This document shows, piece by piece, positions 33-13,994 of a DNA stretch of 14,014 nt. The notes beneath the pieces were generated by a model, which worked only from the letters and a program-made list of their open reading frames with translations, did no database searches and was not told the origin of the DNA. Location of the stretch: positions 16,173 through 30,186 of the forward strand of contig PLRZ01000473.1 in assembly GCA_003164075.1 (NCBI GenBank). The letters run 5' to 3'. The stretch is from Bryobacterales bacterium. GTDB lineage: Bacteria; Acidobacteriota; Terriglobia; Bryobacterales; Bryobacteraceae. The position numbers and the translations under genes were made by a program. The first letter of the stretch is position 1, and each line of letters begins with the position of its first letter.

Positions 33-162
33 CAATTTCAGAACTCCTGATGTCGTGGAATTTGCAGTGAGCCTGCGAAGCTCTCGCCATCGAAAGGAAT
101 GGTTCAGCCCATTTTCCCCGCCGGGCTGAAATTGCGGGGCGACATCGGGAGTTCTGAATTTG
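33..162. repeat. Palindromic (inverted-repeat-ended) intergenic element
   Basis: The arms 39-55 and 140-156 are reverse complements at 16 of 17 positions, and the match continues outward with a few mismatches to 33 and 162. Inside lies a perfect 8-bp hairpin, TTCAGCCC at 103-110 with GGGCTGAA at 123-130. The first 35 bases from position 39 recur exactly at 13894-13928, so this is a dispersed repeat and not a unique site. No coding frame is supported. It resembles a MITE or REP-type palindromic unit; which class cannot be told from one window. Confidence 0.6.
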
Positions 163-542: not shown

Positions 543-797
543 TCAGATCCCCAGGTCCTTGAAGAGCGCGCCGGCGGAACGTGATCGCTTTCCCTTGCCC
601 CTGTCCGCGGCGCGCATGGCCTTCACGGTAGTGGCGTTGGGGATCTTCACCTCGAAGGGCAAGGCCTTCTCCGCGGCCACGCGGACCAGCAACATGCGAA
701 CCGCGTCGGACACCGAGATGCCCATCCCGGCCAGCGTTTTCGCCGCCCTCTGCTTGGTCTTCTCGTCCACGCGCACGTGAACCATGGTCGTCGCCAT
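543..797 (-). CDS. RelB/DinJ-family antitoxin
   Basis: This 84-residue protein has the ribbon-helix-helix N-terminus of the RelB/DinJ family. A beta strand (MVHVRVDEKTKQRA, residues 5-18) is followed by two helices (AAKTLAGMGISVSDAVRMLL, 18-37). A conserved PFEVKIPNATT segment (47-57) leads to a basic C-terminal tail ending LFKDLGI that would wrap the toxin. The protein should neutralise the adjacent YafQ-type toxin and repress its own promoter through the RHH domain. The start is ATG at 797, with GAGAGG nine bases upstream; an internal ATG at 785 is possible. A perfect palindrome lies 18 bases upstream and is the likely operator. The toxin follows in the same frame after a single stop codon. 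With the toxin frame broken, the antitoxin may now be an orphan. Confidence 0.9.
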   Translation of the reverse strand: MATTMVHVRVDEKTKQRAAKTLAGMGISVSDAVRMLLVRVAAEKALPFEVKIPNATTVKAMRAADRGKGKRSRSAGALFKDLGI

Positions 798-1154: not shown

Positions 1155-1523
1155 ATGGAGCTTGTGCCCGTAGTGCCGGAACAGCCGCGCAAACTGATTT
1201 GGCTTGTCGACTCGCTCGTTCGGTTGACGGGCTTTCCGCCGATGGTTCGGAAGAAGCTCGGGTTCGCGTTGTACCAGTCGCAGATCGGTCAGAGACATGA
1301 GAGCGCGAAGATGTTGCACGGTTTCACGGACACGATCTGGCAGGTACGCGCCGACGATCCGAGTGGCACGTATCGCACGGTGTATGCGGCACAACTTGGG
1401 GAAACGGTCTACGTTCTTCATGCCTTCCAGAAGAAGGCAACATCTGGAATCGCGACCCCAAAACGGGAGTTGGATCTAATCCGGCAACGGCTTCAACTTG
1501 CGCGGAAGTTAGCGGAAAAGTAA
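1155..1523 (+). CDS. HigB-type toxin (RelE superfamily, phage Gp49-like family)
   Basis: This 122-residue protein matches the short toxins encoded just before an HTH antitoxin, the reverse of the usual gene order. Diagnostic segments are WLVDSLVRLTGFPPMVRKKLGFALYQ (residues 16-41, in outline), MLHGF (53-57), the core strand TYRTVYAAQLGETVYVLHAF (72-91) and QKKATSGIATPKRELDLIRQR (92-112). Family members cleave mRNA at the ribosome. Residue matches are seen directly; the activity is family knowledge. The ATG at 1155 fits the family length; no clear ribosome-binding site precedes it, so a leaderless or weak start is possible. The antitoxin begins 11 bases after the stop, so the two are co-transcribed. 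The gene is intact, unlike the nearby YafQ-type locus. Confidence 0.88.
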   Translation: MELVPVVPEQPRKLIWLVDSLVRLTGFPPMVRKKLGFALYQSQIGQRHESAKMLHGFTDTIWQVRADDPSGTYRTVYAAQLGETVYVLHAFQKKATSGIATPKRELDLIRQRLQLARKLAEK

Positions 1524-1534
1524 GGAGAGGGAAG

Positions 1535-1855
1535 ATGCCTAATCGAGAGTTTACGCCGAGTTCCGGAAACGTGTTCGCCGACCTTAACCTTCCACATGCA
1601 GATGACCTGCTGGCGAAAGCCGGGTTAGCCGCGAAGATCATCGCGGAGATCCAGCGGCGACGACTCACGCAGAGCCAGGCGGCCGCGATTCTCGGAATCG
1701 ATCAGCCCAAGGTCTCAGCGCTCAGGCAGGGCAAACTGTCCGGTTTTTCGATCGAGCGTCTGATGCGGTTTTTGCTGGTGCTTGGACGCGACATCGAAAT
1801 AACGGTTAAGGGAAGGGCAAAGTCGAGGTCAGTGGCTAGACTCCGCGTCGCGTGA
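1535..1855 (+). CDS. HigA-type XRE/HTH antitoxin
   Basis: This 106-residue protein has a helix-turn-helix at about residues 44-66 (LTQSQAAAILGIDQPKVSAL). It is preceded by the SSGNVFADLNLPHAD segment and a KAGLAAKIIAEI helix, the usual arrangement of the antitoxins that follow HigB-type toxins. After the HTH comes LSGFSIERLMRFLLVLGRDIEI (69-90 in outline), then a basic tail. It should bind and neutralise the upstream toxin and repress the shared promoter. The start is ATG at 1535 with a purine-rich AGGAGAGGGAAG directly upstream. The spacing of 11 bases from the toxin stop points to a two-gene operon. No sign of decay is visible. Confidence 0.9.
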   Translation: MPNREFTPSSGNVFADLNLPHADDLLAKAGLAAKIIAEIQRRRLTQSQAAAILGIDQPKVSALRQGKLSGFSIERLMRFLLVLGRDIEITVKGRAKSRSVARLRVA

Positions 1856-2313: not shown

Positions 2314-2342
2314 AATGGCGGGGACGACGGGGCTCGAACCCG
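2314..2342. repeat. Distal attachment site: duplicated 3' end of tRNA-Asp
   Basis: These 29 bases are identical to 13590-13618, which contain the T-loop to CCA part of the intact tRNA-Asp gene. Identity stops abruptly after CGAACCCG: the intact tRNA continues into its variable and anticodon arms, whereas here the sequence becomes unrelated. So only the 3' tRNA end was copied. This is the standard outcome of site-specific integration into a tRNA 3' end and marks the far end of the island. Confidence 0.88.
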
Positions 2343-2441: not shown

Positions 2442-2462
2442 GAGTCTTGCAAGAGTCTTGCA
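2442..2462. repeat. Tandem decamer pair, probable integrase arm-type site (left)
   Basis: GAGTCTTGCA occurs at 2442-2451 and again at 2453-2462, an 11-base pitch, about 100 bp inside the distal attachment site and just beyond the end of the AAA+ gene. The same pair in the same orientation occurs inside the other end (13524-13543). One helical turn per unit and mirrored placement near both ends suit integrase or excisionase binding. Confidence 0.55.
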
Positions 2463-2484: not shown

Positions 2485-3939
2485 TCACTGAGCGGAGCCC
2501 CGCGACTGGAACTTTAGGAACCTCGCTTCATCCTCCGGGGTAATCGACGGCGGAACTCGCCGCAGAGCATCCAACAGGATGGGTGTCGAAATCGGGGCAG
2601 CCAGCTCACATGCGGCACGAGCAGACTCCTCGACGAGCATCTTGATATCGCTGGCCGAATAGCCATCGAGGATGGCTGCAACACCACGGATATCGAGATC
2701 AGGTTCGATAGGCCGCTGTCGCAAATGAAACTCCAACATGGCGAGCCTCGCCTCCGAATCCGGAGGTGGGATGTACACCAGTTTGTCGAACCTTCCGGGC
2801 CGACGGACCGCGGGATCGATCTTTTCTGGCAGGTTCGTGGCTGCAATCACCAGGACTTTGCGGTCAGCGCAGCCTTCGAGATTCGCGAGGAACTCGTTCA
2901 CTTCCTCCGACTTGTATTGCTGGTGGCCGCCGAGTTCGGACCTGGACGGCGCGAAAGCATCAAACTCGTCAATAAATAGGACTGACGGCGCTTTCTCTAG
3001 AGCCAGATCAAACATCTCGCGTATTCGTAGCACTGTATCGTGGATGTATCGGCTCCCTACATCGGACGGCTTGATGTCCTGAAAAAAGTAGTTGAGTTCT
3101 TCGGCCAGTTGGCGTGCTATGTACGTCTTTCCGCATCCCGGCGGTCCATAGAAAAGAATTCCGTTGGGGAAGCCAATCCGGTATTTTTCGTAGATCGCCG
3201 GACTTCGCAAAGGGCCAACTATCTCCTTCCGAAGCTGCTCCTTGAGAACACCCATTCCAGCGACTTGGCTCAGCCCTCGATTCTCGCCTGTTTGGGGGAC
3301 ATCGCCAAGGCTTAAGACCGATTCGCTATCCGTAGCCGCCAGGTATCCGATCAACACATCGAGCGCATCAGCGGACATACACCGATTCCAGGAGGCCACC
3401 TTATCGATGTTGGCGGCGACGGCCTCCGGATCTATGCCAGTGCTGCACGATAAGAGCACGGTGGCGAGGTCGTGCAAGACTTGAGCCCTGGACGCACTCT
3501 CCGCGAACGCCGCACAGACCGGGACCAGCCCCTCTTTGGAGATCCACAGCAAAGAAGAGCACAGAATGGGCCGGAGATTCGCCTCCACAGCGTTTTCCAA
3601 CAACTTAACGCTCGCAGCCAGCAGGGGCCCCCACTGTACGTTCTGCATTGACGAGATGTTGCCGGGCAACCAACGGCCATGGACACGGATCGACCGCGTG
3701 TTGTTGCCGAGATCCTCGGATAGGTCCGTTACGAGATGTTCATCGAGAATGCGCCACCATTCGGTCAGGCCATCCCTGTCTGGCTCCGTTGAACGGACAA
3801 GTATTAGATCGGAATCGGCCGACGTTTCAAGTAAATACACCTCGATTGACTCGTCGGAATGCAACGCCTTTCGCACTGGCGGGAGATCTCCGACTCGGAA
3901 TCCAAGCGGTAAGGTGGGGCGGCGCGTGATGAATTCCAT
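2485..3939 (-). CDS. AAA+ ATPase (classical AAA clade) with novel N-terminal half
   Basis: This 484-residue protein has a single AAA+ module at about residues 225-470. Walker A is GPPGCGKT (265-272) and Walker B is SVLFIDEFDAF (319-329, D324/E325). Sensor 1 is Asn369 in IAATN, the second region of homology runs through VRRPGRFD (378-385) with arginine-finger candidates, and GYSASDIKMLVEE gives the sensor-2 helix. This is the Cdc48/FtsH/spastin type that remodels or unfolds proteins. Residues 1-220 are unfamiliar; the spacing faintly recalls a degenerate kinase-like fold, but no catalytic HRD or DFG is present. No protease domain is attached. The frame is open to 4020, but I chose the ATG at 3939: it begins five bases after the Hsp70 stop, whereas the longer start would overlap Hsp70 by 76 bases. 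It is the last gene of the chaperone operon and probably acts on Hsp70 clients. Confidence 0.92.
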   Translation of the reverse strand: MEFITRRPTLPLGFRVGDLPPVRKALHSDESIEVYLLETSADSDLILVRSTEPDRDGLTEWWRILDEHLVTDLSEDLGNNTRSIRVHGRWLPGNISSMQNVQWGPLLAASVKLLENAVEANLRPILCSSLLWISKEGLVPVCAAFAESASRAQVLHDLATVLLSCSTGIDPEAVAANIDKVASWNRCMSADALDVLIGYLAATDSESVLSLGDVPQTGENRGLSQVAGMGVLKEQLRKEIVGPLRSPAIYEKYRIGFPNGILFYGPPGCGKTYIARQLAEELNYFFQDIKPSDVGSRYIHDTVLRIREMFDLALEKAPSVLFIDEFDAFAPSRSELGGHQQYKSEEVNEFLANLEGCADRKVLVIAATNLPEKIDPAVRRPGRFDKLVYIPPPDSEARLAMLEFHLRQRPIEPDLDIRGVAAILDGYSASDIKMLVEESARAACELAAPISTPILLDALRRVPPSITPEDEARFLKFQSRGSAQ

Positions 3940-3944
3940 AGGTG

Positions 3945-6455
3945 TCAGTATTGCCGTAGACCAGGCGGTTTGGCGCGCTCCTCGTCTGCTGCTTTCTCGT
4001 CCTGCGGCCAGAGCTTCCACAAATGCTTGACGGCTTCGCGCAGAGAAACGGAGTCACCCTTGCGAACAGCCAACTCTCCGGCGTCGAGCCACTTCCTAGC
4101 TTCCTGCTGATTCACGAATCTCTGCCCGGAGCGCTGTTGAGCTTCAAAGGTATCCTTCCAGTACTTGTCTTGATTAGATCGAACACGCCCGCCGTGAGCA
4201 TCCAGATCTTCGCCGGCCTTTCGAGCACCTCTCTGATCGTCGCGGCTCAATGCTTCCTCAAGTTTGCGCTTCAGTTGTGCGCTTTCCCGCTTCTCGACCT
4301 CAGTCCCAAATTTCTCGGTGATCTGTGTCGTCCTCTCAGCCCGCGCCATTAGTTTTTCGTTTTCTGTCACGGAAATAGCACCAGATCCAGTCGCCCCTTC
4401 GAGGGGAACCAGGCGCCTCCGGATGTCCCGCATCCGTGCGAGCACGCGGCTGGCGAAATCCGGGTCATCGGAGAGTTCTCCCGACCCGAGATCCAGGTCC
4501 ACATCCTCAAGGTCTCTCCTGAGCCGGGTAACTTCCTGGACTGCGGCTGGGTCGTCTCGTTCGGCCACGACCGGCTCCACGGCTGCGAGCCGATCGAGCA
4601 ATGGCCCAATGGAATCCGCCAGTCTGTCCATTTCTTCCTTCGGGGTTTTCTCCTCCCTGTCGGGCACATAAATCTCCTCGGACAATGGCTCGTTGCCATT
4701 GGGCAACTCAGCATCGACCGTGATCCGTCTGGACTCGTCAATATGCACCGTCAGGACAATCTCGGCACCCGCCGCGATGGGACGGCTCAGGTTGCCACCC
4801 CGAATGTTCATGGCCCCAACCCACAGGTTGGCATCGGGATCCTGCCTTGTCTCCCCCTCCCAGACCTTGATAGAGAGGACGTCGTCGCGCTGAGACCCCC
4901 GCAGTTCGCGAGCCGCGCGATATTTCACTTGGCGTTCTTTCGGCAATAAAGTGCCCTTCGGAAAAACGATGTCCAACCCGGTTTTCCCACCAGCCATTAC
5001 AACCTCAATCCCGATCGAATGGGGAATCGGCGGCGCCCCCGGCACCAGACCATGGCGGATACTCAGTTCATTTGATTCCAGATCAACAAGCGATCCATCG
5101 GCTCGTCTGGCATAGACCCAATACCGGGTCAGTTTGCCTTCCACCAGACGCACGGGGAGATCGACGAAAGCGTCATTCTCCAGTTGAATCCACCCGCTGG
5201 TCCAAAAGCCACCGTCGGCGTCGATTTTGATTTCCTCGATGGCATGCGGCGGCACCACCCTCCCGGTGACTGGCGCTTGTAAATCCGAGCTGACTTTGTC
5301 ATATGCAAGCACCAGATTCACTTTCCCGCCCCTGCTCACCGAAGGTGCGGCCGCCCGCGCCCAATCGACACTGGCGGCAAATATCGCCGCGCCGCGCGCG
5401 ACCACAGTCATCGGGTCGATAGAGGAGTCCAGCTTGATCCCAACGCCATCGGTTAAAGCCGCCCTCAGATACGGAATTCGGGTCGGCCCACCCACCAGGA
5501 GAACGCGATCAAGACCGGACGCGGACAGACGAGCCCCGGAAAGAGCCTCACGAACCAACCCCACGCAAGTACGAATCAGCGGTTCGATTTCCTTCTCAAA
5601 GGCAGATCTGCTGACTTCAATCTCGGCTTCGATTGGCGCTCCAAGACGGTCAAGCCCGACGCCCTCGATGCTGACAATAACGGAGTCACGGGTACTGAGA
5701 TCAATTTTGGCATCTTCGGCCTTCATCAAAAGGCGCCTCAAAAGCCGCAGTCGCTCCGGAGAGGGTGCTTCCGGCAACTCGAATTCCCTTTCAAGTGCGG
5801 GAAGGAAAGCTTTCTCCACAATGAGGCGATCCATATCCTTGCCGCCCAGTAGGTTGTTCCCCTGGTGCTCCAGGATGGTGAGCCGCCCTTCCCGCGTTGA
5901 GACTACGGCGATGTCGAGCGTACCGCCGCCCAAATCGAATACGAGCCAGTATTGATCCCACGACTGCGGTCCTACCCCGTACGCCACGGAGGCCGCAATA
6001 GGCTCCTGCAATAGGTACGTTTCCGTAATTCCCGCCAGCGTGGCGGCACGCGAAGTTGCTTCACATTGTAGGGTGGCGAAAGCCGCCGGAACTGTGATAA
6101 CAGCCTGCTGAATTTCCTCATGCGTTTGAAGACGCACGTCCTCTTTCAGGCTCTTCAGGACCTCGGCGGACAATTCCTCCGGCAACATGTTGCGGCCAGA
6201 AGCGGGGAAGGATTTGCTGACCTTCTGCCCCATTGAGCGCTTAAATTCGGTAGCAACGTTGTCAGGATCCTCGATGACCGCGTTGTACGCACGTTTACCA
6301 ACCAGTAGCCGGCCGCGCTTGGAGATGTGCACCGCCGACGGCGTGACGCTCATTTGATCGTTGTTCTGGTACGCATGAACCTCGACACCGTTGGACCGCG
6401 CAACGGCTGAATTCGTCGTCCCAAGATCGATACCGAATCCGTATTCCACACTCAT
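3945..6455 (-). CDS. Divergent Hsp70/DnaK-like chaperone
   Basis: This 836-residue ATP-dependent chaperone is about 200 longer than housekeeping DnaK. The ATPase domain (1 to about 370) keeps the phosphate-1 loop IDLGTTNS (9-16), a lysine at 72 in FKRSMG matching the catalytic lysine, ITVPAAF (120-126), phosphate-2 FDLGGGTLDI (173-182) and the adenosine motif VLLVGGPTRIP (318-328). The hydrophobic interdomain linker of DnaK is not seen. Instead, about 100 extra residues (376-475) precede a substrate-binding beta domain (about 479-586, with SIGIEV, LPKERQV and ISVKVWEGE-like strands). Residues 600-836 are charged helices, a long lid or coiled coil. The start is ATG at 6455 with GAGGAGG seven bases upstream, and it overlaps the GrpE-like stop by ATGA. 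Catalytic residues suggest active ATP turnover. It is an accessory paralogue rather than the main dnaK. Confidence 0.95.
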   Translation of the reverse strand: MSVEYGFGIDLGTTNSAVARSNGVEVHAYQNNDQMSVTPSAVHISKRGRLLVGKRAYNAVIEDPDNVATEFKRSMGQKVSKSFPASGRNMLPEELSAEVLKSLKEDVRLQTHEEIQQAVITVPAAFATLQCEATSRAATLAGITETYLLQEPIAASVAYGVGPQSWDQYWLVFDLGGGTLDIAVVSTREGRLTILEHQGNNLLGGKDMDRLIVEKAFLPALEREFELPEAPSPERLRLLRRLLMKAEDAKIDLSTRDSVIVSIEGVGLDRLGAPIEAEIEVSRSAFEKEIEPLIRTCVGLVREALSGARLSASGLDRVLLVGGPTRIPYLRAALTDGVGIKLDSSIDPMTVVARGAAIFAASVDWARAAAPSVSRGGKVNLVLAYDKVSSDLQAPVTGRVVPPHAIEEIKIDADGGFWTSGWIQLENDAFVDLPVRLVEGKLTRYWVYARRADGSLVDLESNELSIRHGLVPGAPPIPHSIGIEVVMAGGKTGLDIVFPKGTLLPKERQVKYRAARELRGSQRDDVLSIKVWEGETRQDPDANLWVGAMNIRGGNLSRPIAAGAEIVLTVHIDESRRITVDAELPNGNEPLSEEIYVPDREEKTPKEEMDRLADSIGPLLDRLAAVEPVVAERDDPAAVQEVTRLRRDLEDVDLDLGSGELSDDPDFASRVLARMRDIRRRLVPLEGATGSGAISVTENEKLMARAERTTQITEKFGTEVEKRESAQLKRKLEEALSRDDQRGARKAGEDLDAHGGRVRSNQDKYWKDTFEAQQRSGQRFVNQQEARKWLDAGELAVRKGDSVSLREAVKHLWKLWPQDEKAADEERAKPPGLRQY

Positions 6456-6817
6456 CCACCAACCTCCTCACGGGGTGCGCCACGACGAACCGCTACTTGG
6501 CCAGGGCGAATCAGTCGCCCATTGCGCAACACAATGGGAGCGAGCATTACTTCAATCTTGACAGATTCCGCCGGGGCGCCGGCATCCTCTTCCGAGTCCA
6601 CCACGTCTACCGCCAGGCCCGGGTCATATGGTTGTCCCACGAGATCGCAGGTTTCGAATCCGAGCCCATCGAGAAAGGAAGTCAGGGTGCGAGCGGCCTG
6701 CCGTGCCACTACTCTATCCTTTTCAAAGCCTCTCGCAAGGGCCCAGCGCTGGAGTCGCCAACCATCGATGGCAAGTTCCACCAGTGCCGATAGACCCACT
6801 TCGACTGTCTCGTCCAT
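6452..6817 (-). CDS. Minimal GrpE-like nucleotide exchange factor
   Basis: This 121-codon gene lies between the J-like gene and Hsp70. The second half matches the GrpE beta domain: LTSFLDGLGFETCDLVGQPYD-type helix and loop, then DPGLAVDVV, followed by VLRNGRLIRPGQVAVRRG, the family's R-x-L-R-P-A-x-V-x-V ending. GrpE opens the Hsp70 ATPase domain to release ADP. The N-terminal part is a short helical segment (VELAIDGWRLQRWALARGF) in place of the 60-80 residue dimer coiled coil of E. coli GrpE, so it may act as a monomer. The start is ATG at 6817 with GGGAGG just upstream. A longer frame reaches 6964 but would overlap the preceding gene, and its extra residues do not look GrpE-like. The stop overlaps the Hsp70 start (ATGA), so translation is coupled. 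The assignment rests on the C-terminal match plus context. Confidence 0.8.
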   Translation of the reverse strand: MDETVEVGLSALVELAIDGWRLQRWALARGFEKDRVVARQAARTLTSFLDGLGFETCDLVGQPYDPGLAVDVVDSEEDAGAPAESVKIEVMLAPIVLRNGRLIRPGQVAVRRGAPREEVGG

Positions 6818-6890
6818 TGCGCCTCCCGCCCCAGGTGTTGGGTGGGTATCCCGACATTTGATCCTGACCGTTTCTAGCGGCACCGTCGCA

Positions 6891-9800
6891 TTATTGCTCC
6901 GGTCGTTTGACACCGCCGCCACCGAAGTCTTCGGCCGAAATTGCCTCCGTCCGCGCCGTCCCATTCGGCACGGCGTGCAGAGTCACACTGTTGATGGAGG
7001 ACCATATTTTGTTGGCCTCGCGAGTCTCCGAAAATATGAACGGTTCCTCGAATTTGGAGAACGCACAATCCTGCCTGAAGGAACCGGTAGTAACATCCCA
7101 ATCTCGGCCGGTTGCGAACTCCAACACATAGTTCCCCACCGGAATTTTCGGGATGGTTAGGTCGCTCATGGCTCGTACGTAGACCAATCGGAGCGTGACT
7201 TGATCGTCTGCGGTCTTCAATTTCACGACGGCGTCCTTGTTCGTATAGTTGCTGATCTTGAACTGGCCTCGTCCTGCGGTGCTGGGCAGAGGGATGAGGT
7301 TGGTACCGTTGGGCAAGGAAACAGGATCGTGAGTCTCCGTAACCGTGGGCGGGTCCTTTTTGCTGCTGAGTTCCAAGTCCGCAATGGAAGGCTCCCACTT
7401 TGGGCTGTTGATGCTCTTAATGAGAAGCGGTATCGCTGCGAGAATCGCGATCCCAACGACGATAACCAGTGGTCGCCTAATCCGAGAATCCGGTGCTTTC
7501 GAAAATGTCGAAGACGTGGTTCGTCGCGCCCCACTACTGGATCCGGCGTCCACAGTTCGGGAAGATCCCGGTTCTGATGCTGACCGTTGCTTCTTCGCCC
7601 TGGCAAGTTGGCGCGTGACCTCTTCCCTCAGCCGTCCGCCGTTCGAGGTCAGCGGGAGCGCCTTTGAAGCAAGAGCACACACGGCATCATAATCATCTTT
7701 GCAGGCGAATTCGTGTGCCATGAGATACAGGCACTCTGCAGCTGCATCCCGCACCCGGGTCACAATTTCACGATTGCTTCCGCAACTTGCGAGGATAGTA
7801 GCCATCCACGGCTCGGCTTCGCGCTCGTAATCGCCACTTATCGTCTTGGAGATGACCCGAATGGCACCCGCAGTGCCGCGGCTTGCCTGAATCTCGCGTC
7901 GGCACTCCAGCAGGAGGGATTTGCATAACTGCAAGAATCCGGCGACACTCGGTGGGTCGTCCACCTGCGAGGAACTGCCGTGGGTACCCCCCGAGTCAAT
8001 AGATGAGTTCTTATCCCCTGATTGCCCCGATCCAGTTACTGTCTGAGGCGGGGTTCGGCGGGGGATCTCCCCGTACAATTGCGCGCGCCGCCTGGCGATT
8101 TCATTGGCAGCATATGAATTCTCCGGCGCGAGTTCGGCTGCCGCTGCCATCAGGTTTGATGCCTTTCCGCGGTCATCACAGTGTTGGAAGCCTTCTGCTA
8201 TCGCGAGGAGACATGCTGCGGCCGCAGCCCTTGCTCTAACAGCGTGGGGGCTCGTTTCTGAATCCGTGGTGATGATTCTTGCGAGCCACGGCGATATGGT
8301 GTTTTCGTATCGCTGGTAGGCTTGCTCGCACATTGTCGCGCGGGTTGCACGAACCTCCTCGCAAAGACCCTCGAACTTTTCGATGTCGGCGTCCTTCCGC
8401 CGCCTTCGCTCTTCTACTCCCTCGCCGTCTGGACTTCCCGAGCGGTTCAGATTACCCGGTGCCTCAGAGGCAGTCCGAGTGCGGCTCTTCAAGGCCAGGC
8501 TTGAATGATGCCGCGCGATTTCTGCGAGAGTTTCTGAGTCCTGTGCTGCGAGTTCTGCCGCTACGACCATCAGATCCGATGCTCGGGCTGGTTCATCGCA
8601 ACGTCGAAAACCATCGGCGATCCGTAGAAGACATCGCGCTGCAGCGGCCTTAGCGCTGAGGCAGCGGGGCCCGATTTCTGAATCCGCAGCGCGTATCGTC
8701 GAAAGCCATGGCAACACTGTCTTGTCGTATCGCTGGTATGCTCGTTCGCAGACCTGGACCGCCGCTGTGGAAGCGCCTGCCGCGGCCAGTTTGAGAGCCT
8801 GCGAGATGTCGGAGGGTGCATCCTGGCAGAGGGATTCGAAGCGCTGTAGTTCCAACTCCTGCTGTCGCGTCCGTTCTCTCTCCCTCTCTTGGGACGCTTC
8901 CCCTGAAAACCGGCTGATCGCGCCTTCAATCCGCTCACGAGCCGGGCTGTCTGGAGGCAAACAGGAAAGTGCTAGGCTCATGAGCCTCTCGGCTTCTATC
9001 CAGTGATCTGCCCACGTCAATGCGTTCCCGAGGCCAGCCAGAAAATCGCCGTACTCTTGTCGCACGCGCAACCCCGCTACAGAGCGGGTGCCAGCCATTG
9101 CGACGAAGTCTCGGTACCTCGGTTCCAGTTCCTGCTTCCATCGGTCTACTGCTGCCTCGCATGGTTTTTCGTTCGACTTCGCGCTGGCTCTGTCCTGCCG
9201 GATATCTGCCCAACAGCGTTTAGTAATCTCTTTTGAATTGCGGACCAGATTGTCCTCATATGGTCCAAATACGCTCTCCTCGATGGCAGATCCTATTTCG
9301 GATGGAAGCGCCGTGCGAACGATCCTAAGGGCGCGTCGGCAACGGTCAAACTCGGATCGGGAAGCTGCATCGCGCGCCAGTTGGGCGATAGGTTCAGTCA
9401 CAAGTTGGAGCGATTCAGCCTTGAGTTGATCGAAATCTTCAAGCGATGCCAATGGCTCGAAATCACTTAATTCTTCAACATCCCGAAATCCGCTCCAGAA
9501 CTCTTCTGATTCAACCAGGTTCGTCCACATTTGGAGCGCGATTCGCCAATGATCGGCATCCTGTACAGCCGCATCCTTCATGAAGCACGCTGCCAGGGCG
9601 AGCACTGCCGCATCATGGTGATCAGCAGGAAGCAGGGAGGACCGCAGCGCTGCGACCGAATTGTCGATGGTTTTCGGGGAAATATCCGCGACAAAGGTCT
9701 CAGATTGAGAGATCCAAAAGAGCCTCGCGGTCAATCGCTGGCGTGAATTGTTCAGCCTCCCCAGCGCATCCGAGATGGAACTCCGGTCGTGTTGGGATTG

Positions 9801-9980
9801 GCTGTACCATTCAAGATCCCAGGGCGAAGGCGGACGTCTCACTCCCACTCGCACTGCACGATCCAGAGCAGCGGCGCGTTCTAGGATGGCTTTCTGGGAT
9901 GCGTTGCCTGGCAGGCCCAGCACTCGAAACGCATTCTGCGCGACCTGTTGCAGTAAAGCAGATTGCTCATCGGACCCCAT
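6891..9980 (-). CDS. Membrane-anchored protein with J-like N-terminus, three helical repeats and C-terminal beta domain
   Basis: This 1029-residue protein is the first gene of the chaperone operon. Residues 12-90 open with NAFRVLGLPGNASQKAILERA and continue through a helix pair, the pattern of degenerate J-like domains that accompany bacterial Hsp70 paralogues; the catalytic HPD tripeptide is absent. Residues 100-400 are helical, TPR-like. Three modules of about 90 residues follow at 404-495, 544-635 and 704-795, the first two very similar (CERAYQRYDKTVLPWL versus CEQAYQRYENTISPWL), separated by Ser/Gly/Arg-rich linkers. One membrane segment (835-854, PLVIVVGIAILAAIPLLI) is followed by a beta-rich region (900-985) including NKDAVVKLKT, LRLVYVRA and IPVGNYVLEFATGRDWD. 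The start is ATG at 9980 after GGGAGG. It probably recruits Hsp70 to the membrane and brings clients through the repeats. The chaperone role is inferred from context. Confidence 0.85.
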   Translation of the reverse strand: MGSDEQSALLQQVAQNAFRVLGLPGNASQKAILERAAALDRAVRVGVRRPPSPWDLEWYSQSQHDRSSISDALGRLNNSRQRLTARLFWISQSETFVADISPKTIDNSVAALRSSLLPADHHDAAVLALAACFMKDAAVQDADHWRIALQMWTNLVESEEFWSGFRDVEELSDFEPLASLEDFDQLKAESLQLVTEPIAQLARDAASRSEFDRCRRALRIVRTALPSEIGSAIEESVFGPYEDNLVRNSKEITKRCWADIRQDRASAKSNEKPCEAAVDRWKQELEPRYRDFVAMAGTRSVAGLRVRQEYGDFLAGLGNALTWADHWIEAERLMSLALSCLPPDSPARERIEGAISRFSGEASQERERERTRQQELELQRFESLCQDAPSDISQALKLAAAGASTAAVQVCERAYQRYDKTVLPWLSTIRAADSEIGPRCLSAKAAAARCLLRIADGFRRCDEPARASDLMVVAAELAAQDSETLAEIARHHSSLALKSRTRTASEAPGNLNRSGSPDGEGVEERRRRKDADIEKFEGLCEEVRATRATMCEQAYQRYENTISPWLARIITTDSETSPHAVRARAAAAACLLAIAEGFQHCDDRGKASNLMAAAAELAPENSYAANEIARRRAQLYGEIPRRTPPQTVTGSGQSGDKNSSIDSGGTHGSSSQVDDPPSVAGFLQLCKSLLLECRREIQASRGTAGAIRVISKTISGDYEREAEPWMATILASCGSNREIVTRVRDAAAECLYLMAHEFACKDDYDAVCALASKALPLTSNGGRLREEVTRQLARAKKQRSASEPGSSRTVDAGSSSGARRTTSSTFSKAPDSRIRRPLVIVVGIAILAAIPLLIKSINSPKWEPSIADLELSSKKDPPTVTETHDPVSLPNGTNLIPLPSTAGRGQFKISNYTNKDAVVKLKTADDQVTLRLVYVRAMSDLTIPKIPVGNYVLEFATGRDWDVTTGSFRQDCAFSKFEEPFIFSETREANKIWSSINSVTLHAVPNGTARTEAISAEDFGGGGVKRPEQ
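7596..8771 (-). repeat. Intragenic triplication encoding three helical modules
   Basis: The segments 8496-8771, 8076-8351 and 7596-7871 each encode the same roughly 92-residue pattern: xYxR-Y-(D/E)-PW(L/M), a Ser/Asp/Glu loop, an Ala-rich helix with a C-L-L/Y-x-(I/M)-A motif, then A-x-D-L/C-A and a basic end. Modules 1 and 2 are close at the protein level and partly at the DNA level (CGTATCGCTGGTA recurs); module 3 has diverged. Confidence 0.7.
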
Positions 9981-11130: not shown

Positions 11131-11724
11131 TCATACGGAAGCCGCCTGACCATCCGGCACGTATGGCGCGGGCCGTGGCATTAGGCCGGCGCGTGGCAGA
11201 ATGCGCTCGATTTGGATCTGGTCGAGTTCCTGGTGACGAACAAGTTCGCCGGCCAGCGCGGCGATCAGGTGCCAGTGCTGGTCGACAAGATCGCGGGTCC
11301 GCGCCCGCAACCGGTGGGCAACGCGAACCGCAGCTCGCCAACCGTATGGCGGTTCGCACAGCGACAGCATCATGCAGTCGCTCGCAGCGTTCCGCAAATC
11401 ACAGTCCACGCGCGCGGGAAATTCGATTGGTCCAGGCGGCGCCGGCGTTACACCGGCGCTACTGAACCCAGCCAGGTATCCCGAATTCCCGACCCGGGCG
11501 CTCTTGTCGGCCATGATCGAAAGCTTCCACACGAAATCGCCGCGGGCCCACTGCGCGATGGCATGCCCGGCTTCATGATGCGCAAGCAGTTCTTCCGGCG
11601 TACGCCACCGCTGCCAGCCCGGCGCCGAGCCCTGGAGAGCCCGGCGTGCGGCGGCTTTGCCGGCGAGGTGCACGACAACGGCCGCTTCGAAGCGAGCAAT
11701 GATGCGCTCGGTCTCCGCCGTCAC
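11131..11724 (-). CDS. Stand-alone M41-like zinc metallopeptidase domain
   Basis: This 197-residue protein has the zincin motif HHEAGHAIAQWA at 49-60, with H50-E51-x-x-H54 expected to bind zinc and catalyse. The C-terminus (TRDLVDQHWHLIAALAGELV, then RHQELDQIQIERIL) matches the end of the FtsH peptidase domain, where a helix is followed by the L-x-x-x-E-I segment. FtsH carries an AAA+ domain and membrane helices in front of this domain; here they are absent, and the region holding the third metal ligand is shortened. Activity is therefore uncertain. GTG at 11724 is the start and overlaps the preceding stop (GTGA), so it is translationally coupled to the coiled-coil gene. An island AAA+ ATPase lacking a protease is encoded elsewhere in the element; a split FtsH-like pairing is imaginable but not indicated by gene order. 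Confidence 0.78.
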   Translation of the reverse strand: MTAETERIIARFEAAVVVHLAGKAAARRALQGSAPGWQRWRTPEELLAHHEAGHAIAQWARGDFVWKLSIMADKSARVGNSGYLAGFSSAGVTPAPPGPIEFPARVDCDLRNAASDCMMLSLCEPPYGWRAAVRVAHRLRARTRDLVDQHWHLIAALAGELVRHQELDQIQIERILPRAGLMPRPAPYVPDGQAASV

Positions 11725-12673: not shown

Positions 12674-13261
12674 CTACTTGGGTTCGGCGTCTGCGATTGC
12701 CTTCGAAAGGCGCCGTAACATTACGTGGCTGTCATCGCGGATCACCTTGTAGATCGCCTCGATGTCGTGCAACGCCGCCACAGCGGGAGCGAGCCTGTCG
12801 GCCATGGCCAGCACATGGTCGCGGACGAGCCACGAGAACGTGGTCGCGTACTGCGCCAACTCAGTGGCCTCTTTAAGTTCCCCGGCGGCGAAGCGTTCCA
12901 AACGTTCGGCCCGTTTGGCGTCGGCGATTGCTTTCTTCGCCCTGGCGACCAACAGTACGGCTCCTGCATCGCCAGAGAACCTGGTGGTTGTGGCGGCAGG
13001 CTCGACGGGGGGCGGCGCTGCTACCGGCCCTGCCGGCCCACGCTTACCTCTGCCGACGTTGTGGGAAGGGTCTGTGCGGCGGGCGATCCAGTCGAGCGCC
13101 ACCGCCGCATCGACCTTGCCGTCCGGTAGCACCGGCATCCCGGCGTGCACCAACTGCGACACCCGGGGTTTGCTGATCTTCAATCGCCGCGCAAGTTCTG
13201 TCTTGGAGATGGTCGGCTGGCAGAAGATCAAGTCGTGATCCTGGTAGTCGGGTCCGTACAA
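12674..13261 (-). CDS. Phage Nu1/terminase-small-subunit-like DNA-binding protein
   Basis: This 195-residue protein has an N-terminal winged-helix/HTH (SKTELARRLKISKPRVSQLV, residues 19-38) followed by GMPVLPDGKVDAAVALDWIA (41-60). That is the pattern of lambda Nu1-type small terminase subunits, which bind the packaging site. After a Pro/Ala linker comes a helical region (ARAKKAIADAKRAERLERFA) and a C-terminal helix bundle with MADRLAPAVAAL, as in Nu1-like proteins of prophages. No large terminase or capsid gene is nearby, so packaging is not complete here; a satellite-type or regulatory role is possible. The first usable start is TTG at 13261. TTG at 13231, preceded by AGGA, may be the real one. 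Its 5' end abuts the broken 5' end of the integrase, suggesting a deletion junction. Confidence 0.72.
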   Translation of the reverse strand: MYGPDYQDHDLIFCQPTISKTELARRLKISKPRVSQLVHAGMPVLPDGKVDAAVALDWIARRTDPSHNVGRGKRGPAGPVAAPPPVEPAATTTRFSGDAGAVLLVARAKKAIADAKRAERLERFAAGELKEATELAQYATTFSWLVRDHVLAMADRLAPAVAALHDIEAIYKVIRDDSHVMLRRLSKAIADAEPK

Positions 13262-13523
13262 GCTCTTGTCATCGTTCTGCTGGGCACGATGATCTGCCAG
13301 AAGGCGTCAGCCTCCACTCGCTACGGCACACCAACGCGACCGAGTTATTGCGCAACGGCGTACCCATCGCGGAAGTCAGCCGGCGCCTTGGGCACGCAGA
13401 TCAGAACATCACGTTGTCAATTTACAGCCATGCCGTCCCCGCCGACAGTCGCGCAGCGGCGAAGGTTTGGAATGATGCACTCGGGGACGTGATTCAGACC
13501 AGCAAAAAACCTGCGGCGACGCA

Positions 13524-13543
13524 GAGTCTTGCAAAGTCTTGCA
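13524..13543. repeat. Tandem decamer pair, probable integrase arm-type site (right)
   Basis: GAGTCTTGCA at 13524-13533 is followed directly by AAGTCTTGCA at 13534-13543. It is the counterpart of the pair at 2442-2462, same strand and orientation, about 47 bp inside the tRNA-proximal attachment site. It overlaps the 3' part of the integrase frame. Confidence 0.55.
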
Positions 13544-13589
13544 CGGAGACTAGGAAATTGGGAGTTTTTGTTGGAAACAAAAGGAAGAA

Positions 13590-13668
<79 letters not shown>

Positions 13669-13796: not shown

Positions 13797-13894
13797 GTCT
13801 TTCCCCTCTTGTTAAGAGCAGTTGCTTTGGGCGCGGCGTAGCGGACCCTTGACGGCGAGGACCGTTCCGAGAGACTCGCGAAGAGGGGAAAGAC
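13797..13894. repeat. Inverted repeat with 14-bp perfect arms
   Basis: GTCTTTCCCCTCTT at 13797-13810 and AAGAGGGGAAAGAC at 13881-13894 are exact reverse complements around a 70-base loop. The right arm runs directly into the dispersed 35-bp repeat starting at 13894. It could be a small palindromic element, a MITE-like unit or a structured RNA; no open frame of interest lies inside. Confidence 0.6.
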
Positions 13895-13928
13895 AGAACT
13901 CCTGATGTCGTGGAATTTGCAGTGAGCC
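13894..13928 (+). repeat. Second copy of dispersed 35-bp repeat
   Basis: These 35 bases are identical to 39-73. In the first copy this sequence is the left arm of a palindromic unit; here no matching right arm appears before the window ends, so the unit is either cut off or differently organised. Confidence 0.8.
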
Positions 13929-13994
13929 CGCAGGTGGGCAGGCGGTGCTCGCCTTCGCTCGATCCTATTCGAGCAGCGGGCCTAATTCAGCGCG

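What the first reader, a model, noticed from the sequence alone, without database searches (positions are those of the whole stretch)
2485..9980. Complete accessory Hsp70 machine with an AAA+ motor carried as island cargo
Seen: four co-directional genes (J-like/TM repeat protein, GrpE-like, Hsp70, AAA+), the last three coupled by ATGA and a 5-nt gap, inside tRNA-Asp direct repeats. Known: DnaJ, GrpE, DnaK and the AAA+ ClpB cooperate in disaggregation. Inference: this is a mobile, membrane-tethered, self-sufficient chaperone-unfoldase system with all parts diverged from the housekeeping set. It may handle membrane or envelope clients, or sense and act on foreign proteins in a conflict or defence role.
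Basis: partly seen in the sequence, partly recalled or inferred. Interest (0 to 1): 0.88.

Follow-up and report, generated by a model that had tools for sequence, protein, structure and literature searches.

The report
Membrane-anchored mobile Hsp70–AAA+ chaperone operon
A small mobile DNA island carries a second chaperone machine of its own kind, apparently tied to the cell membrane; some of its relatives in other bacteria sit beside anti-virus genes, so it may be an undescribed kind of bacterial defence that works by pulling proteins apart, but this is untested.

Summary
The four genes are real and lie in an 11.3-kb tRNA-Asp island with exact 29-nt end repeats, an integrase remnant and a terminase-like gene. 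The set recurs in several phyla. In 46 Hsp70 loci a GrpE-fold gene is directly upstream in 39 of 43 with room, a J-like protein nearby in 42 of 46, the AAA+ directly downstream in 27 of 45. Of 18 host genomes, 16 hold a separate DnaK over the curated cut-off. In type II loci the J-like gene is separate, and a partner protein often has a TM helix and a peptidoglycan-binding domain. Several relatives lie beside Gabija, Zorya, BREX, RADAR or Septu genes, but a small control is not significant. Best reading: an envelope-anchored Hsp70–Cdc48-like remodelling machine, possibly anti-phage. Weak point: type I and type II J-like proteins are only marginally alike. Closest precedent: GTPase-centred HSP70/GrpE/DnaJ conflict systems (PMC7159879).

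The parts
6891..9980 (-). J-like / TPR-like / single-TM protein (1029 aa): degenerate J-like N-terminus without HPD, helical repeats, hydropathy TM at residues 839-857, C-terminal strand-rich domain (about 905-1002 in the model)
   Evidence: AF2 mean pLDDT 78; N-terminal profiles find mainly DnaJ chains in PDB, but at weak E-values
6452..6817 (-). GrpE-like nucleotide exchange factor (121 aa; longest ORF begins at 6964, ATG 6817 preferred)
   Evidence: alignment; AF2 pLDDT 89.8; top 12 Foldseek rows are all GrpE entries, TMq 0.42-0.61
3945..6455 (-). Hsp70 (836 aa): ATPase domain (7-361), extra conserved region of about 120 residues (not modelled), SBD-beta-like part, long C-terminus
2485..3939 (-). 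single-domain AAA+ ATPase of the Cdc48/p97/FtsH class (484 aa) with its own N-terminal region
2314..2342 (+). left attachment-site repeat (copy of the tRNA-Asp 3' end)
13590..13618 (+). right attachment-site repeat, overlapping the tRNA-Asp 3' end
13592..13668 (-). tRNA-Asp (GTC), the integration site
2443..2462 (+). tandem AGTCTTGCA pair inside the left end, possible recombinase arm sites (inference)
13525..13543 (+). tandem AGTCTTGCA pair inside the right end
13348..13584 (+). C-terminal remnant of a tyrosine recombinase
   Evidence: phrog_1 E 2.3e-11; PF00589 E 0.0092
12674..13261 (-). phage terminase small-subunit-like gene in the same island
   Evidence: phrog_57 E 1e-21

Best explanation
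It is an accessory, horizontally moving chaperone module. A membrane-anchored J-like/TPR scaffold, with a segment predicted to lie outside the cytoplasm, holds a dedicated Hsp70, its own GrpE-like exchange factor and a Cdc48-class AAA+ at the inner membrane. Shown by sequence or model comparison: the four parts, their order and recurrence, phosphate-binding and Walker A/B motifs in the two NTPases, the GrpE fold, a hydropathy TM segment, and presence on mobile elements. Inferred: the scaffold recruits or senses a client at the envelope, Hsp70 grips it (GrpE resetting Hsp70) and passes it to the AAA+ for unfolding or disassembly. The client is possibly a phage or other foreign protein, because several relatives lie beside defence genes and no nuclease, protease or toxin was seen in the conserved set.
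For: Set and order: G 39 of 43, AAA+ 27 of 45, J-like 42 of 46 (21 type I-like, 21 type II). Separate DnaK over the cut-off in 16 of 18 genomes and in two type II genomes. Patchy: 6 of 297, 4 of 398, 3 of 369 genomes, seeds included. GrpE fold. Cdc48 class. Walker A 20 of 20, Walker B 20 of 20, DLGTTN 33 of 33, DxGGGT 33 of 33. Peptidoglycan-binding domain in 6 of 9 type II partner proteins tested. Type II J-like and partner fused in one gene in Sinorhizobium/Aminobacter (probabilities 99.7 and 99.6). Defence neighbours: BREX, Zorya and Gabija, RADAR, Gabija and type IIG RM; Septu, Hachiman, DISARM, BREX-helicase models among 60 neighbour ORFs.
Against: No phage or stress phenotype is known. 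The in-record control is small and not blind: defence genes in 7 of 9 focal against 2 of 9 control regions (Fisher p 0.057), with PADLOC scans on four focal regions only; by annotation names alone 4 of 9 against 2 of 9, p 0.62. Type I loci like the window have weaker defence linkage: of 10 neighbour proteins checked singly, 3 of L014 and 1 of L011 matched PADLOC. The window itself shows only toxin-antitoxin-like and phage-remnant genes. The J-like homology is weak (best E 0.014), and direct profile comparison of type II with type I J-like proteins failed (0.2 and 2.0%; only the window protein reached 46%). AAA+ is missing in 18 of 45 loci. My sensor-1 and arginine-finger patterns matched only 12 and 9 of 20 AAA+ (narrow patterns). 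4 of 15 type II partners have no TM by hydropathy.
Confidence: 0.47

Rival explanations
1. It is an accessory envelope-proteostasis (stress-resistance) island: the machine refolds or extracts damaged membrane or periplasm-facing proteins and is not a defence system.
For: All parts are chaperone-type. Predicted TM and peptidoglycan-binding domains. A mobile protein-quality-control island is known in Pseudomonas aeruginosa clone C (PMC7685784, passages). Loci without the AAA+ showed no defence link here, though their listed neighbours were not scanned.
Against: None of that locus's parts named in the passages (ClpG, FtsH protease, DegP, HtpX) is annotated in the focal regions viewed (no profile search was made for them). 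Several relatives lie among restriction and defence genes.
Confidence: 0.29
2. It is a chaperone-gated conflict system of the kind predicted for GTPase-centred HSP70/GrpE/DnaJ systems: the machine drives assembly of a large complex or keeps an effector in check, rather than unfolding a client itself.
For: Kaur et al. 2020 (PMC7159879, passages) describe GAP1-N2 GTPase neighbourhoods with HSP70, GrpE and FNIII proteins fused to DnaJ or TPR. The C-terminal part of the J-like or partner protein varies (strand-rich domain in the window model; rhodanese in L017 and L026; peptidoglycan binding).
Against: No non-core gene cluster recurs in 5 or more loci apart from the type II J-like/partner proteins and an IS3-type transposase (clusters were not searched for GTPases, and the E. 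coli region has YfjP-type GTPases). Walker motifs and a [YF][IV]H motif at the pore-loop-1 position in 20 of 20 AAA+ rows favour threading.
Confidence: 0.16
3. It serves the mobile elements themselves (integration, transfer or replication chaperone), not the host.
For: It lies on an island, plasmids, a Tn7-like element and contigs filed as viral.
Against: The carriers look unrelated; the only element gene seen to recur is an IS3-type transposase (six loci). It is also on chromosomes.
Confidence: 0.08

Closest known systems
GAP1-N2 GTPase-centric conflict systems with HSP70/GrpE/DnaJ (Kaur et al. 2020, PMC7159879, passages)
   Same: HSP70 with its own GrpE and a DnaJ- or TPR-bearing protein in a predicted conflict system; membrane association in GAP1-N2 systems
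   Different: Centred on GTPases with FNIII-DnaJ fusions, mainly in actinobacteria and firmicutes. Here no GTPase was found in the window proteins scanned, the J-like domain lacks HPD, and a Cdc48-class AAA+ is the motor.
DnaK-DnaJ-GrpE-ClpB bichaperone
   Same: Hsp70 ATPase domain, GrpE fold, J-like helper, AAA+ partner
   Different: No HPD, no canonical linker, extra region in Hsp70, short GrpE, single-domain Cdc48-class AAA+ in place of ClpB
IetAS anti-phage system (IetA AAA+)
   Same: The AAA+ matches PADLOC IetA models (E 5e-34)
   Different: Far below the NCBIfam equivalog cut-off (113 of 510 bits). Partner set is Hsp70, GrpE and J-like. That IetA pairs with a protease, IetS, is recalled.
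CoCoNuT CnuD / NxD McrB-Hsp70 fusions (PMC11090510, passages)
   Same: Hsp70-like protein in a defence context
   Different: There Hsp70-like domains are fused to McrC or McrB homologues, with degenerate Walker A-like motifs and a proposed RNA target. Here Hsp70 stands alone with its own exchange factor.
TLPQC / locus of heat resistance (PMC7685784, passages)
   Same: Mobile island of protein-quality-control genes
   Different: Different genes (ClpG, FtsH, DegP and others)

Membership tests
Hsp70 | Hsp70 ATPase domain with phosphate-binding motifs | tested here: met
   PF00012 E 1.8e-74; DLGTTN 33 of 33, DxGGGT 33 of 33, EPxAA 32 of 33, GGxT 27 of 33, K70-like pattern 24 of 33 (patterns recalled)
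Hsp70 | canonical interdomain linker (D-V-x-P-L-S type, recalled) | tested here: not met
   1 of 33; similarity to solved substrate-binding domains starts only at positions 118-136 of the C-terminal profile
GrpE | GrpE fold (helices plus beta wing) | tested here: met
   AF2 pLDDT 89.8; top 12 Foldseek rows all GrpE entries, 8 of them at E 0.001 or better
GrpE | binding to and nucleotide exchange on its Hsp70 | not testable with these tools
   needs biochemistry
J-domain protein | J domain with HPD motif | tested here: not met
   HPD in 0 of 21 type I-like J ORFs (L009 and L016 lack the N-terminus) and 0 of 21 type II ORFs
J-domain protein | J-domain helices by sequence profile | tested here: inconclusive
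   6 of 8 PDB rows are named DnaJ (E 0.03-0.27) and the top row, mKIAA0962 (E 0.014), is a J protein by recall; 14 of 25 rows; no Pfam DnaJ match
ClpB/Hsp104 disaggregase | two-ring Clp-class AAA+ | tested here: not met
   one AAA domain; the 60 PDB rows shown (of 265) are Cdc48/p97, AFG2, NVL/Rix7 and kin, none ClpB; ClpA model E 0.0062
Cdc48/p97-class AAA+ | classical AAA domain with Walker A and B | tested here: met
   CDC48 model E 1.2e-52, below its full-length cut-off; Walker A and B 20 of 20
IetA equivalog | curated score cut-off | tested here: not met
   113.4 of 510 bits
GAP1-N2 HSP70 conflict systems | GTPase in the operon | tested here: inconclusive
   none among the 10 window proteins scanned with Pfam; other window ORFs and the relatives were not searched for GTPases
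tRNA-anchored integrative island | direct repeat of the tRNA 3' end at both ends | tested here: met
tRNA-anchored integrative island | complete integrase | tested here: not met
   only a C-terminal remnant
anti-phage defence system | protects against phage | not testable with these tools
   no PADLOC model matches the window J, G or Hsp70 at E 1; type II members give only weak matches (PDC-M61B E 0.0068, PD-T4-6 E 0.0016); some relatives lie beside defence genes

The most novel reading that the evidence does not exclude
A stand-alone bacterial immune system in which a membrane- and often peptidoglycan-anchored Hsp70/GrpE/J-like machine feeds a Cdc48-class unfoldase, so that forced unfolding or disassembly of an invader's protein at the envelope is itself the effector, with no nuclease, protease or toxin.
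Probability: 0.33. Interest if true: 0.88.

Novelty: new variant of a known kind. Interest (0 to 1): 0.67.

Why it matters
Hsp70 machines are usually regarded as housekeeping. A mobile, apparently membrane-anchored set with its own exchange factor and a Cdc48-class motor, recurring from Acidobacteria to (rarely: 2 of 5,426 genomes with any match) E. coli and in several cases beside defence genes, suggests that proteostasis machinery may have been turned into a defence or conflict tool. It is compact (4-5 genes), occurs in culturable hosts and can be tested directly.

Tried and rejected
ClpB-type disaggregase: rejected by class of AAA+. tRNA linkage as a general rule: rejected (1 of 25 loci with any tRNA), though one E. 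coli copy lies in a tRNA-Phe island. The single-sequence scan of genome contigs with the window Hsp70 found no relative; the alignment of its C-terminal region did. Fold search of the whole J-like model gave helical-repeat matches; a J fold for its N-terminus was not listed, which is inconclusive. A profile that mixed full-length and trimmed J-like rows found nothing; the trimmed one did. Direct profile comparison of the type II J-like set with the two type I-like sets found no match (probabilities 0.2 and 2.0%), so their kinship rests on weak N-terminal similarity and on shared place in the operon. Promoter and terminator scan: numbers near chance. Plasmid search with the J-like protein hit only its C-terminal part. 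Phage records gave only the Hsp70 ATPase part in the 20 of 39 records listed. The 91 neighbour ORFs of the loci without AAA+ were listed but not scanned.

Literature: ten searches of the open PMC library returned no paper that I recognised as describing this set. One search was uninformative (20 of 5,467 papers listed). Subscription papers and bioRxiv are not held. PMC11090510, PMC7159879, PMC12169576 and PMC7685784 were seen as passages only; all others as listings.

Changed on review: the linker-to-SBD stretch is no longer called a beta domain (it was not modelled); TM in the type II partner is now 11 of 15; the failed type I/II comparison and the annotation-only control were added, and odds for the best reading went from 0.50 to 0.47 and for the novel case from 0.35 to 0.33, with rivals raised by 0.01 each.
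Full report
What is there. The window holds an 11.3-kb island between exact 29-nt copies of the tRNA-Asp 3' end (2314-2342 and 13590-13618). Just inside each end lies a tandem pair of AGTCTTGCA (four of the five copies in the window; mean 0.07 in shuffles), a layout that would fit recombinase arm sites (inference). Only the C-terminal part of a tyrosine recombinase is left (13348-13584), with a terminase small-subunit-like gene beside it. The cargo is four minus-strand genes in the order J-like, GrpE-like, Hsp70, AAA+.

Identity of the parts. The Hsp70 has a full ATPase domain (residues 7-361). Similarity to solved substrate-binding domains starts only at positions 118-136 of a profile that begins at residue 365, so there is an extra conserved region of about 120 residues; it was not modelled. 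The canonical linker pattern is missing (1 of 33). The small protein is GrpE-like: sequence alone was marginal (E 0.1; 4ani E 0.024), but the model (pLDDT 89.8) has GrpE entries in the top 12 Foldseek rows. The AAA+ belongs with Cdc48/p97 (60 of 265 rows shown). It keeps Walker A and B in 20 of 20 relatives and [YF][IV]H at the pore-loop-1 position in the 20 aligned rows (that this is the pore loop is by recall). My patterns for sensor 1 and the arginine finger matched only 12 and 9 of 20. The J-like protein has an N-terminus that resembles J-domain helices I and II weakly: 6 of 8 PDB rows are named DnaJ (E 0.03-0.27) and the top row is a J protein by recall; 14 of 25 rows in a broader search. 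HPD is absent (0 of 21; 0 of 21 type II). Then come TPR-like helical repeats, one TM helix by hydropathy and a C-terminal strand-rich domain that should face outside the cytoplasm (inference).

Recurrence. Loci were collected from the Hsp70 side: plasmids (L007 and L008 are not members), 19 genome contigs, 1 and 6 viral contigs, E. coli and further plasmids, and sampled genomes. One search counted 46 of them; left out were L007, L008, the duplicate L022, the truncated L030, the short or duplicate copies L035-L044 and L067-L069, and the control regions L052-L060. G lies directly upstream in 39 of 43 with room. Of the four misses, L019 is an ORF-calling artefact (G was found) and L005 has an unlabelled 117-aa ORF there; L050 and L051 remain. 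AAA+ is directly downstream in 27 of 45. A J-like protein is nearby in 42 of 46 (21 type I-like, 21 type II; L002 and L005 are weak). All three are present in 24 of 46. The loci are not all independent (L003/L031; L032/L033/L034; L015/L017/L026). One of these, L076, is a new J-G-Hsp70-AAA+ locus. The other 8 are generic AAA+ without it.

Layouts. Type I (window; Proteobacteria and Acidobacteria MAGs by record title): J-like with TM, G, Hsp70, AAA+. A second group (L015, L017-L021, L025, L026 from Acidobacteria, L024 titled Bacillota) has J-like, G and Hsp70 without the AAA+; two of its J-like proteins carry a rhodanese domain (L017 and L026, the two tested). Type II (mostly gammaproteobacteria and plasmids; also G213 from the phylum sample of G003): G, Hsp70, AAA+, then a partner protein X and a separate J-like protein in either order. 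X has a TM by hydropathy in 11 of 15 and a peptidoglycan-binding domain in 6 of 9 tested (yes: L001, L003, L004 fused form, L047, L070, L071; no: L029, L061, L062). In Sinorhizobium and Aminobacter the J-like and X parts are fused in one gene upstream of G, without the AAA+ downstream (probabilities 99.7 and 99.6). How the type I and type II J-like proteins relate is open: the window protein matches the type II set in register but weakly (46%, E 2e-4), the other type I-like sets do not (0.2 and 2.0%), and the fused X part matches the type I C-terminal part at 87%.

Accessory and mobile. Of 18 genomes that hold the Hsp70, 16 have a DnaK over the curated cut-off and the other two have DnaK in pieces; the accessory Hsp70s score far below it. 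Two type II genomes also hold a separate DnaK-like Hsp70. The family is rare: 6 of 297, 4 of 398 and 3 of 369 sampled genomes, counting the seed genomes that I started from, and 2 of 5,426 E. coli genomes with any match to a type II query.

Neighbourhoods. Near type II relatives and their AAA+-less kin: BREX in Haliscomenobacter, Zorya and Gabija in Polaromonas, RADAR RdrB and a DptF remnant in E. coli HeN100, Gabija and type IIG restriction in Sinorhizobium, restriction genes in another Sinorhizobium, GajA/GajB-like in Aminobacter and DndC-like in Pseudomonas. One Tn7-like element, seen in two plasmids, carries the set beside its transposition genes with no named defence gene, and Vibrio has none. 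That is 7 of 9 after merging near-identical elements, against 2 of 9 antipodal regions of the same records (a CRISPR III-B and a BREX region), Fisher p 0.057. The comparison favours the focal side because four focal regions were also scanned with PADLOC; by annotation names alone it is 4 of 9 against 2 of 9, p 0.62. In 60 hand-chosen neighbour ORFs of ten unannotated type II loci, PADLOC at E 1e-20 matched 97 models (25 shown), among them Septu, Hachiman, DISARM, BREX helicase, RT and methyltransferase; only the first member (L061, PtuB) can be placed. In 73 neighbour ORFs of eight type I loci PADLOC matched 27 models at E 1e-8, and Pfam showed resolvases, integrases, a conjugation coupling protein and a transposase next to metabolic genes. 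Of ten proteins checked singly only three of L014 and one of L011 (MADS8-like AAA) matched. The window itself has no named defence gene among the proteins scanned.

Mechanism. The most economical reading is an envelope-anchored relay: scaffold and sensor (J-like, with X where separate), gripping by Hsp70 with its own exchange factor, and unfolding by the AAA+. Loss of HPD suggests that the J-like part positions Hsp70 or responds to a trigger rather than stimulating it in the usual way (inference). A variable outer part on a conserved inner core looks like a receptor or anchor (inference). That the target is a phage protein rests on neighbourhood and mobility only. Loci without the AAA+ show that Hsp70, G and J-like can stand without it.

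Known or new. The nearest published idea I found is the GTPase-centred HSP70/GrpE/DnaJ conflict neighbourhoods of Kaur et al. 2020 (PMC7159879, passages). This set differs in motor, J-like protein and taxonomy. CoCoNuTs use Hsp70-like domains differently (PMC11090510, passages), and host DnaJ is required for phage sensing by bNACHT25 (PMC12169576, passages). None of ten searches of the open PMC library listed a paper that I recognised as describing this set. I therefore call it a new variant of a known kind, with moderate confidence in the machine and less in the defence role.

Noticed in passing
window 543-797 (-): RelB/DinJ-family antitoxin (TIGR02384 E 1.8e-21) outside the island.
   Followed up: no
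window 1155-1523 and 1535-1855 (+): Possible two-gene toxin-antitoxin pair (phrog_2523 E 2.6e-15, unknown function, and an HTH protein phrog_2339 E 3e-16) just left of the island.
   Followed up: no
window 39-76 and 13894-13931: A 38-nt repeat, 97% identical, flanks the whole region outside the tRNA-Asp repeats; the left copy also has an inverted partner nearby (140-162).
   Followed up: no
window 11131-11724 (-): Small protein with an HEAGH motif and weak M41 peptidase similarity (E 0.0035, below cut-off) inside the island.
   Followed up: no
L008 1230-10668: Haloarchaeal plasmid with a shorter Hsp70 next to a VWA protein and, further off, a tubulin-like protein, resembling the GTPase/tubulin/HSP70 systems of PMC7159879.
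   Followed up: no
L007 8734-9498: The C-terminal domain of the window J-like protein occurs without Hsp70 in a Hymenobacter plasmid protein a few kb from a TerD/VWA cluster.
   Followed up: partly
L017 and L026 J-like proteins, residues about 481-573: Rhodanese domain at the C-terminus of the J-like protein after the predicted TM segment.
   Followed up: no
L061 17584-19323: A second X-like gene beyond the core operon on a contig filed as viral.
   Followed up: no
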